Shown here: in pieces, positions 8,170 through 60,847 of the stretch
How positions within the stretch are numbered: the stretch's first letter is position 1
Layout: each line of letters opens with the position of its first letter
Source of the DNA: Brevundimonas naejangsanensis DSM 23858
Lineage (GTDB): Bacteria > Pseudomonadota > Alphaproteobacteria > Caulobacterales > Caulobacteraceae
Assembly: GCF_000421705.1 (NCBI RefSeq)
Contig: NZ_ATXN01000004.1
Coordinates: 131,501 to 195,500, forward strand
Reading direction: 5' to 3'
DNA: 64,000 nt
The notes under the pieces: model-generated
The model's database searches: none
Seen by the model: only the letters and a program-made list of their open reading frames with translations
Told to the model about the DNA's origin: nothing
Position numbers and translations under genes: made by a program

Positions 8170-9408
8170 TTAAGCCTTGGCGCCCTTGCGGCCCGTTTTC
8201 TTGTGCACAGGATCAACGCTGGCGCGCGTCTCGTCCAGAGGCCATCGGGGCCGGGCGGCGACATCGATGTCCGACGTCAGCCCTTTTTCCAGCCGCTCGG
8301 CCCCCGCCAGGGCGATCATCGCCGCATTGTCGGTGCAATAGGCCATCGGCGGCGCCAGAAAGGCGAAGCCGTATTTCGTCGCCAGATCCTCCAGCGTCCG
8401 CCGGATCGTCTTGTTCGCCGCGACCCCGCCAGCCACCACGAATAGCTTGCGCCCTGCCGCCTCGCGCGCGGCGCTCGGCTGCTTGAGGGCGTCTTGGTCA
8501 AGCCCTACCGCCTCGCGCGCGGCGCTCGGCTGCTTGAGGGCGTCTTGGTCAAGCCCTACCGCCTCGCGCGCGGCGCTCGGCTGCTTGAGGGCGCCGTCAG
8601 CGAGTTCCGGATGCGCTTCGGCATAGGCCTTCATCGCCCGCTCGGTCCGCTCCGCCAGTTGGCGCGCGATGGCCTTCTGCACCGCATCGGCCAGATCGGC
8701 CCGATCCTGATCCGTCTCGCAGGTCTGGGCCAGACGCGACGCCGCCGTCTTCAGCCCCGAGAAGGAGAAGTCGCAGTCCTTGCGCCCCAGCAGCGCCCTG
8801 GGCAGCTCGAAGCGCGAGCCATCGCCTGACGCCGCCAGCCTCTCCAGCGCCGGTCCGCCCGGATAGCCCAGCCCCATGGCCTTGGCGATCTTGTCGAAGG
8901 CCTCGCCCGCCGCGTCGTCGATGGTCGTGCCCAGACGGCTCATGTCGCCGATGCCGCGCACCTCCAGCAGCTGACAGTGCCCGCCGGACACCAGCAGCAG
9001 CAGGAAGGGATAGGTCGTCTCCGCACCCAGCCGCGCCGACACCGCATGGCCTTCCAGATGGTTGACCGCGATCAGCGGCAGCCCGCGCGCCAGCGCCGCC
9101 GCCTTGCCGTACGACAGGCCCACCATGACCCCGCCGACCAGCCCCGGCCCCGCCGTCGCCGCCACGCCGTCCAGCGCGCTCCAGTCCAGCCCGGCCTCGG
9201 CCATGGCCCGGCGCGTCACGCCGTCGATCATCTCCACATGGCTGCGAGCGGCGATTTCCGGCACCACGCCGCCATAGGCCGCATGGTCGTCGATCTGGCT
9301 GTGGATGACGCTGGACAGCACCTCGGCGCCCGCCGCCGACAGGCGCACCACCGAGGCGGCGGTCTCGTCGCAGCTGGTCTCGAGCCCCAGCACGGTCAAT
9401 CCGTCCAT
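8170..9408 (-). CDS. tsaD: tRNA N6-threonylcarbamoyladenosine synthase subunit TsaD, with a repeat-derived insertion
   Basis: The protein has 412 residues; the family usually has about 340-365. It starts with the conserved [14 protein letters not shown], and the metal-binding [11 protein letters not shown] is present. So are the ASKH-fold nucleotide motifs [26 protein letters not shown] and the C-terminal [10 protein letters not shown]. TsaD transfers the threonylcarbamoyl group to A37 of ANN-reading tRNAs and is essential in most bacteria. Just before the strand [11 protein letters not shown] there is an extra stretch of roughly 50 residues in which [11 protein letters not shown] occurs three times. 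It is encoded by three copies of a palindromic DNA element also found between genes elsewhere in the window. The frame is intact throughout, so the gene appears functional. Confidence 0.95.
8451..8593 (+). repeat. Three palindromic elements in tandem (51-bp period) inside tsaD
   Basis: Three 41-bp copies (8451-8491, 8502-8542, 8553-8593) are separated by the identical 10-base spacer TCTTGGTCAA. Each has the outer stem GCCCT/AGGGC (first copy starts GCCCTG rather than GCCCTA), an inner imperfect hairpin around CGCGCG, and the conserved GCTGCTTGAG box. The same box and architecture occur in intergenic copies at 32492, 39717, 41465 and 60709, and reversed at 21751, 21799, 41508 and 60804. The period of 51 bases is 17 codons, so the reading frame of tsaD is kept. 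Confidence 0.92.
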
Positions 9409-9521
9409 GACGCCCCCTTGGCCCCGTTCGGTTGCCCCGTCCGTCGCCCTGCTATAGTCCGCGTCCATCTTCATTGGGCGGAGTTAGCGACCCGCCCCCT
9501 CTTTCGCAACGGCGACCCGAC

Positions 9522-21750: not shown

Positions 21751-21790
21751 GCGCTCAAGCAGCAAGCCGCCGCGCGGCGAGCGATAGCGC
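21751..21790 (-). repeat. Palindromic element, copy (reverse orientation)
   Basis: The outer stem is GCGCT/AGCGC, the inner hairpin GCCGC-CGC-GCGGC, and the conserved box reads CTCAAGCAGC on this strand (GCTGCTTGAG on the other). It is 40 bp long and lies in the gap between the universal stress gene and the giant glutamate dehydrogenase gene. Confidence 0.85.
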
Positions 21791-21798
21791 CTCAAAAA

Positions 21799-21837
21799 GC
21801 GCTCAAGCAGCGAGCGACCGCGTCGCGAGCGTAGCGC
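21799..21837 (-). repeat. Palindromic element, second copy (reverse orientation)
   Basis: The outer stem is GCGCT/AGCGC and the inner hairpin GCGAC-CGC-GTCGC, with the CTCAAGCAGC box. It lies eight bases after the previous copy and directly abuts a 12-bp-stem hairpin at 21838-21865. Confidence 0.85.
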
Positions 21838-32491: not shown

Positions 32492-32533
32492 GTCGCTAAC
32501 GCGAGGCGCGCGGCGCCTCGCTGCTTGAGCGAC
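32492..32533 (+). repeat. Palindromic element after secB, copy 1
   Basis: The outer stem is GTCGCT/AGCGAC, the inner hairpin GAGGCGC-GCG-GCGCCTC (perfect), then GCTGCTTGAG. It begins seven bases after the secB stop. Confidence 0.9.
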
Positions 32534-32540
32534 AAGATGG

Positions 32541-32582
32541 GTCACTATCGCAGGACGCGCGGCGTCCTGCTGCTTGAGCGAC
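32541..32582 (+). repeat. Palindromic element after secB, copy 2
   Basis: The outer stem is GTCACT/AGCGAC (one mismatch), the inner hairpin AGGACGC-GCG-GCGTCCT (perfect), then GCTGCTTGAG. The inner stem has a different sequence from copy 1 but keeps full pairing. Confidence 0.9.
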
Positions 32583-41464: not shown

Positions 41465-41508
41465 CGTCCCTATCGCCTCGCACGCGGTGCGAGGCTGCTT
41501 GAGGGACG
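41465..41508 (+). repeat. Palindromic element after rho, forward copy
   Basis: The outer stem is CGTCCCT/AGGGACG (7 bp, perfect), the inner hairpin GCCTCGCAC-GCG-GTGCGAGGC (9 bp, perfect), then TGCTTGAG. This is the best-paired copy in the window and starts three bases after the rho stop codon. It could act as the rho terminator. Confidence 0.93.
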
Positions 41509-60708: not shown

Positions 60709-60748
60709 GTCCTAGCGCTCGCGACGCGGTCGCTCGCTGCTTGAGGAC
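60709..60748 (+). repeat. Palindromic element, ftsK-lolA gap, forward copy
   Basis: The outer stem is GTCCT/AGGAC, with the inner core GCTCGCGAC-GCG-GTCGCTCGC and the box GCTGCTTGAG. The inner part is the exact reverse complement of that in the copy at 60804. Confidence 0.87.
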
Positions 60749-60803: not shown

Positions 60804-60847
60804 GGGCGCTGAAGCAGCGAGCGACCGCGTCGCGAGCGATAGCGCCC
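60804..60847 (-). repeat. Palindromic element, ftsK-lolA gap, reverse copy
   Basis: The outer stem is GGGCGCT/AGCGCCC (7 bp, perfect), the inner part GCGAGCGAC-CGC-GTCGCGAGC, the box CTGAAGCAGC. With the copy at 60709 it forms an inverted pair 55 bases apart. Confidence 0.9.

What the first reader, a model, noticed from the sequence alone, without database searches (positions are those of the whole stretch)
8451..8593. Palindromic mobile-like elements inserted three times, in frame, in the essential gene tsaD
The sequence shows three 41-bp copies with a 51-bp period and an identical 10-base spacer inside tsaD. Each adds 17 residues ([17 protein letters not shown]), so TsaD is about 50 residues longer than the family. 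The same element, with the GCTGCTTGAG box, lies between genes elsewhere in the window. In-frame invasion of genes by palindromic elements is known from Rickettsia; I know of no such report for this order. The insertion falls in the stretch just before [11 protein letters not shown], likely a surface loop tolerating extra residues.
Basis: partly seen in the sequence, partly recalled or inferred. Interest (0 to 1): 0.85.

Follow-up and report, generated by a model that had tools for sequence, protein, structure and literature searches.

The report
Hairpin repeats spliced into essential gene
A short hairpin-forming DNA repeat that is scattered through Brevundimonas genomes sits, three times in a row and without breaking the reading frame, inside an essential tRNA-modification gene, and related species differ in whether they carry it at that same spot.

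Summary
In detail: three near-identical 51-bp units lie in frame in tsaD (window 8451-8593, minus strand), making the TsaD loop 52 residues longer than in most relatives. Each unit is a copy of a dispersed REP-like hairpin (variable outer stem, TCAAGCA/GNTA internal loop, 9-bp variable inner stem, A-rich 3' tail, about 48 bp). This genome has 36 exact-pattern copies; 87 of 101 Brevundimonas genomes have more than any control; in the family sample only one other genus has more than one match per genome. Stems covary. Of 81 TsaDs, 15 carry the element in the same loop, always in one orientation and frame; 57 have the common 21-residue loop. A loop-free gene tree needs 13 changes of state. TsaE, a partner of TsaD, carries the element in a second frame in 4 of 30 loci, this genome included. 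So it is not an old fixed loop. "Inserted three times" is less likely than one insertion followed by tandem unit gain. In-frame palindromic insertion is known beyond Rickettsia (Di Nocera 2013). New here: an untagged REP-like family without a recognisable RAYT, and repeated occupation of one site in an essential gene. Whether that is re-entry or old insertion with loss is open; the mover is unknown.

The parts
8173..9408 (-). tsaD (412 codons from the ATG of MDGLTVLG; an upstream start at 9474 would give 434 aa); the only full TsaD match in the genome
   Evidence: the second match in G000 is 35% identical over residues 50-129, in a 256-aa frame, TsaB-like
8553..8593 (-). element copy 1 in reading order (core CTCAAGCAG..GTAG at 8556-8589), codes [13 protein letters not shown]
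8502..8542 (-). element copy 2 (core 8505-8538), codes [13 protein letters not shown]
8451..8491 (-). element copy 3 (core 8454-8487, GCAG instead of GTAG, so missed by the pattern), codes [13 protein letters not shown]
21754..21834 (+). two tandem intergenic copies (cores 21754-21787 and 21802-21834, 48 bp apart); relatives G067 and G031 have one unit here
32496..32578 (-). two tandem intergenic copies with different stems (cores 32496-32529, 32545-32578, 49 bp apart); relative G031 has one
41470..41503 (-). single intergenic copy, perfect inner stem
60712..60745 (-). single intergenic copy; its inner stem is different but fully paired in relatives G067 and G069, with the near flanks nearly unchanged
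60809..60842 (+). diverged copy (CTGAAGCAG box), opposite orientation

Best explanation
The three units are copies of a genus-wide, non-autonomous, REP-like hairpin element of about 48 bp. A copy entered the loop between the helix [14 protein letters not shown] and the strand LFVVAGG of TsaD, in frame and in a stop-free reading; the array then grew from one to three units by slippage or unequal exchange of whole units (51 bp). Four of the six frames of the consensus element are free of stops (read by eye), and the site is a loop by homology, so the host tolerates it and the peptide is translated. Shown: identity with the dispersed family, stem covariation, presence/absence among relatives, unit number differences and stem changes at orthologous intergenic sites. 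Inferred: translation, neutrality of the peptide, one insertion before amplification, and movement by an unidentified single-strand DNA activity.
For: Dispersed family: 36 exact-pattern copies here, control 2; 99 of 101 genus genomes have at least one match and 87 have more than 4, the highest control count. Structure: 65 chosen of 119 distinct copies, 88.3% of cells paired, 194 cells changed on both sides and the covariation score each reached by 0 of 500 shuffles; the number of pairs with a double change (11 of 13) was reached by 17 of 500. The collecting pattern fixes CTCAAGCAG and CGNTAG, so those columns carry no information. tsaD inserts alone: 13 distinct, 152 of 169 cells paired, 12 double changes, 0 of 1000 shuffles reach either. 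Presence/absence: 15 of 81 TsaDs, 13 changes on the loop-free tree. Second gene: tsaE insert in 4 of 30 loci read, other frame. Unit number differences at orthologous sites. Group mates L093-L096 and L100 share the HPEL..ADG flank with one unit against three here.
Against: No transposase found: Y1_Tnp (PF01797) matches 0 in this genome and 3 of 101 in the genus; the exact box CTCAAGCAG is absent from those three fetched loci. The tsaD unit folds no better than shuffles as DNA (z -0.02), unlike L017, L183 and L018 (z -5.5, -3.2, -2.4). No target-site duplication or target motif could be defined. The 51-bp period is a multiple of three, but so are 16 of 29 short spacings in the catalogue, so this is no evidence of frame selection. 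The stem type of tsaD inserts is not that of most genomic copies.
Confidence: 0.8

Rival explanations
1. One ancient insertion in the Brevundimonas ancestor, later lost in many lineages (or replaced by recombination with empty alleles), with the element's stem rewritten in place.
For: Inserts of distant lineages share orientation, frame, and in 10 of 13 distinct inserts the GCC/GGC outer stem, which is found in 11 of 149 catalogue copies, two of these being tsaD's own. The CTCG stem type is in 6 of 9 representative tsaD inserts (L171 left out; L111 and L112 may be one event) but 2 of 135 catalogue cores. Stem changes in place exist.
Against: Needs 26 losses against 13 gains on a midpoint-rooted tree. 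37 of 57 loops of 21 residues end in HR(L/M)FV, while 0 of 15 inserted alleles keep HR, so simple excision would not restore it. Among six inserted and 21 empty rows of one clade, divergence among inserted alleles is not lower near the site (ratio 1.03-1.09). L127 and L171 carry other stem types. The mean pairwise distance among tsaD inserts (6.4) is no smaller than that of random catalogue draws (6.2; 58% of draws as low).
Confidence: 0.3
2. Repeated, site-preferring insertion of the element at this one spot of tsaD (a hotspot).
For: 13 changes on the tree; nearly the same junction in the 15 inserts, with different 5' flanks and stems; TsaE is also hit at one turn with two different stems.
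Against: No shared target motif in the base profile around 138 copies beyond the element's own tail. Selection could simply remove insertions elsewhere in the gene. The shared stem type of tsaD inserts is unexplained.
Confidence: 0.4
3. The hairpin acts in the mRNA (processing, stability or translation of tsaD and the following gene), so selection keeps its pairing within the coding sequence.
For: Compensated pairs within tsaD inserts, e.g. C-G to T-A between L112 and L111, which share a 3' flank.
Against: 66 of 81 TsaDs lack it; the present copies have two unpaired positions in the inner stem and one of them folds no better than shuffles as DNA; conversion between copies explains the pairing equally well. 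RNA folding was not done.
Confidence: 0.12
4. An old protein loop with internal repeats, unrelated to a DNA element.
For: It is in frame and within a gene.
Against: The hairpin occurs at 127 of 149 catalogued places outside predicted genes, in another frame in TsaE, and 57 of 81 TsaDs have the short 21-residue loop.
Confidence: 0.02

Closest known systems
REP elements of the GTAG and CGTC superfamilies (Di Nocera 2013, PMC3733652; section 15 and passages read)
   Same: Short palindrome, dispersed, often near gene ends, dimers and arrays, heterogeneous paired stems, short tail, in-frame intragenic copies, a same-site case in recB of two Xanthomonas species
   Different: No GTAG or CGTC tag before the palindrome; a two-part stem with an asymmetric internal loop; head-to-tail neighbours dominate (29 same-strand pairs under 70 bp against 1 opposite) where the paper reports mainly HH dimers
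Rickettsia palindromic elements (RPE)
   Same: In-frame insertion into genes of probably functional proteins (as cited in PMC3733652)
   Different: No RPE sequence was compared here; RPE-1 is longer (PMC3733652 calls it a longer palindromic insertion). Here one site recurs across many species and an array of units lies in the gene
REPtron/RAYT-mobilised REPs (PMC8266576, passages read)
   Same: Imperfect hairpin with recurrent mismatches in the stem (here GA/GA in 96 of 135 cores; AA-GC bulge in E. coli REP)
   Different: No Y1 transposase found in this genome and no GTAG foot

Membership tests
REP (general) | short (20-50 nt) palindrome in many copies, mostly extragenic | tested here: met
   34-nt core in 135 of 149 copies, 36 exact-pattern copies in this genome, 127 of 149 outside predicted genes (crude gene finder, four genomes, part of their copies)
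REP, GTAG type | palindrome preceded by GTAG | tested here: not met
   the 5' side is CTCAAGCA; NTAG (G in 48 of 135) follows the palindrome and closes the outer stem
REP, CGTC type | terminal CGTC, 8-9 bp stem, 4-5 nt loop, CCA tail | tested here: not met
   no CGTC end in the consensus, loop 3 nt, A-rich tail; the 9-bp inner stem alone fits
RAYT-mobilised REP (REPtron) | a RAYT gene (Y1 transposase) in the genome, flanked by the repeat | tested here: not met
   0 matches in G000, 3 of 101 in genus; no exact CTCAAGCAG in those three loci. A very divergent RAYT could be missed
Rickettsia palindromic element | in-frame insertion into genes of functional proteins | tested here: met
   function of the proteins is inferred from gene essentiality (general knowledge) and intact reading frames
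Rickettsia palindromic element | sequence homology to an RPE family | not tested
   no RPE sequence was fetched
MITE | terminal inverted repeats with target-site duplication | tested here: inconclusive
   outer stem pairs, but I could read no duplication from filled/empty tsaD, tsaE or intergenic sites
known structured RNA family | Rfam match | tested here: not met
   at gathering scores only a tRNA in the window; two sub-threshold matches in 8 loci, neither over an element

The most novel reading that the evidence does not exclude
A mobile hairpin of Brevundimonas is targeted, by an undescribed mover, to fixed loops of the t6A-synthesis proteins TsaD and TsaE, re-entering the same sites in lineage after lineage, and its pairing is renewed inside coding sequence by conversion between genomic copies.
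Probability: 0.15. Interest if true: 0.8.

Novelty: new variant of a known kind. Interest (0 to 1): 0.52.

Why it matters
It adds a genus-wide REP-like family outside the two described tag superfamilies and gives a natural series of filled, empty and amplified alleles of one essential gene. That makes two old questions testable: how palindromic repeats without a RAYT move, and how often such repeats create new protein loops that persist.

Tried and rejected
Old protein loop: rejected. RAYT as mover: no support. Exchange of the inserted allele between species: no dip in divergence around the insert among six inserted rows against 21 empty rows of their clade; a short or old tract is not excluded. 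Mean pairwise distance of tsaD cores against random catalogue draws: no signal (58% of draws as low), although the stem-type counts of the same call do differ. Rfam: nothing over the element. One search used a pattern with wrong spacing and found 0 in all 101 genomes, this one included; ignored. Searches failed on input length; 55 was corrected, the RNA folding was not repeated. Site 41470 against G031 (L306): the flanks do not match, so L306 is taken as a different site. In one search rows L317, L319, L322 and L323 are empty over much of the region and L321 and L324 do not appear; the 32496 comparison failed there and was redone. Coupling of TsaD and TsaE inserts: not supported (G007 has only TsaD's, G036 only TsaE's, G000 and G003 both). 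In some searches the first search expressions missed rows; all 81 were recovered.

Full report
OBSERVATION. TRF reports 8451-8593, period 51, 98% match. It is read on the minus strand inside tsaD, whose product passes the curated TsaD cut-off but matches in two stretches. The loop between AIARQL and VAGGVAAN has 73 residues here. By sequence match the insert falls between residues about 253 and 258 of enterobacterial TsaD (PDB 3zet, 4ydu), just before the VMAGGVSAN stretch.

THE ELEMENT. A loose pattern gave 43 matches in this genome with 10 for the reversed control; a tighter one 36, control 2. Of 101 genomes of the genus (this one included) 99 have at least one match of the tighter pattern, the most 64; two have none. 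Control counts are 0-4 per genome, and 87 of 101 genomes exceed 4; low counts, such as the single match in G080, need not be elements. Of 119 genomes sampled from the family, 17 are of the genus; of the 102 others nine have a match, and only two, of one other genus (g25), have more than one: 7 and 22. I collected 149 distinct copies with flanks from this genome and three relatives, G086, G095 and G026 (47, 38, 31 and 33). For the relatives these are most but not all of the listed places. 135 have a 34-nt core. Outside it lie a pairing outer stem of 3-4 bp and, 3' of it, an A-rich tail (41-61% A at positions 7-10 after the core, 13-33% from position 12 on; 138 copies of 32-34 nt). Same-strand neighbours under 70 bp number 29, most often 48 bp apart (7 of 29), against one opposite-strand pair; 16 of 29 spacings are multiples of three. 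In 65 of 119 distinct copies that I chose for variety, 88.3% of pair cells are standard pairs and 11 of 13 pairs change on both sides; cells paired, double changes and covariation score were reached by 0 of 500 shuffles, the number of pairs with double change by 17 of 500. Two inner pairs are mostly GA/GA (96 of 135 cores). No Rfam family fits.

LOCATION. With a crude codon-usage gene finder, 127 of 149 copies lie outside predicted genes and 22 inside predicted ORFs. Several of the 22 are weak ORFs or N-terminal extensions of uncertain start. Of the 127, 70 lie between genes of one direction, 40 between convergent, 14 between divergent, 3 undetermined. Among those with a neighbour the nearest gene end is a 3' end in 77 and a 5' end in 50; the median distance is 23 bp.

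TSAD IN RELATIVES. The first look was at 30 loci of 59 genomes with a match among 61 (28 of the 30 aligned, all 30 read). The main set is 80 named loci (the best 80 of 203) plus this genome; the two sets overlap. Fifteen of 81 carry an element-derived insert: L031 (this genome, three units), L093-L096, L100, L108-L112, L127, L137, L147, L171. All 15 are in one orientation and in the LKQ frame (in L108, L110, L127 and L171 with changes). Three (L104, L106, L107) have a 15-residue extension without element sequence; 57 have 21 residues; six (L139, L149, L166, L168, L170, L172) differ by a few residues. On a tree built without the loop the insert label needs 13 changes. Gains only: 13; one gain at the root: 26 losses (midpoint root). 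Against many random insertions speaks the likeness of stem types among tsaD inserts, although the mean pairwise distance shows no such likeness. Against allele exchange speaks the flat divergence ratio around the insert. Against simple excision speaks that 37 of 57 short loops end in HR(L/M)FV while 0 of 15 inserted ones keep HR. I leave this open between recurrent entry and old insertion with loss. The 13 distinct tsaD inserts keep their pairing (152 of 169 cells) with 12 double changes. This may reflect fresh copies, conversion or selection.

TSAE AND OTHERS. In this genome a copy lies in frame in tsaE (L183/L273): SEPAPQAAALREGGDRGLSGRVATVSG, against SEQGDGRLATVSG and the like in empty relatives. 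Four of 30 TsaE loci read have it (L273-L276), one with a different, paired stem. Twenty-nine further genomes with a TsaE match (59 of 61 searched) were not read. The frame is QAA, not LKQ. Element-coded stretches also occur at the N-terminal side of TsaD (L196, two copies), ThiC (L221), ThiD (L265), HemW (L023, two copies), before FTLVELM-type pseudopilin motifs (L002, L255; label recalled, not searched) and, antisense, in an ORF that matches a phage terminase model far below its cut-off (L240, two copies). TsaD, ThiD and HemW pass their cut-offs; the truncated ThiC does not (581.6 of 650 bits). The true starts are unproven. The consensus element is stop-free in four of six frames (read by eye), and the 22 ORFs include all four; the antisense ones are poorly supported as genes.

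DYNAMICS. At the 21754 site this genome has two units, G067 and G031 one. At 32496 it has two units with different stems, G031 one. At 60712 the inner stem differs between relatives (CGAC/GTCG in this genome and G007, CCGC/GCGG in G067 and G069) with near flanks almost unchanged. So arrays differ by whole units, and stems change on both arms at one site. Conversion between copies or template switching would do this; which one is not shown.

MECHANISM. I favour a non-autonomous single-strand hairpin element copied by an unknown activity. No Y1 transposase was found here. One tsaD unit folds as DNA no better than shuffles (z -0.02), while three other copies, one of them the tsaE copy, do, so the tsaD units may no longer be active. 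RNA folding was not done (one search failed).

KNOWN WORK. PMC3733652 (section 15 read; passages) describes REPs within ORFs of many species, clusters coding 43-82 residues in Thauera and R. conorii, RPE-4 and RPE-6 as CGTC REPs, and same-site REPs in recB of two Xanthomonas species. Its main text does not name Brevundimonas or Caulobacter, but says CGTC REPs occur in all orders of alpha-Proteobacteria; its gene list (Additional file 3) was not seen. PMC8266576 (passages) describes the GTAG foot and the needed stem mismatch of E. coli REP. PMC12306157 (passages) does not name Caulobacter. Searches for Brevundimonas, Caulobacter, Caulobacterales or tsaD with palindrome or REP terms listed no report of this element (also 75 on intragenic REPs); only listings were seen, and except for (no paper; 2 of 2) these show part of the papers found. 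A 2003 paper on long intergenic repeats of Caulobacter is recalled and was not seen.

VERDICT. Real, in frame, element-derived and variable among relatives: a new variant of a known kind. The surprising part is the repeated occupation of one site in an essential gene and the second case in its partner tsaE.

Noticed in passing
L183/L273 (this genome, contig C7 116321-116821): tsaE of the same genome carries the same element in frame in another reading frame; also in G069, G003 and G036 (the last with a different paired stem).
   Followed up: yes
L196 223-1455 minus: In another Brevundimonas genome two element copies lie in frame at the N-terminal side of TsaD while its inner loop is short.
   Followed up: partly
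L240 781-2259 plus: Two antisense element copies in frame within an ORF that weakly matches a phage terminase, so the element may also enter phage-like genes.
   Followed up: partly
L002, L255: Element copies lie in frame just upstream of FTLVELM pseudopilin-type motifs in two genomes; they would lengthen only the cleaved leader.
   Followed up: no
L006, L022, L190, L191: A shorter hairpin variant with the same boxes (CTCAAGCAG, short stem and loop, CGNTAG) occurs in the same genome.
   Followed up: no
L093 (JAFKFS010000172.1): A contig titled Bordetella MAG carries a Brevundimonas-type tsaD with the insert; the record is probably mislabelled.
   Followed up: no
L104, L106, L107: The B. terrae group has a 15-residue loop extension at the same place (two start HPDL/HPEL) but no element sequence, possibly a decayed insert.
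   Followed up: partly
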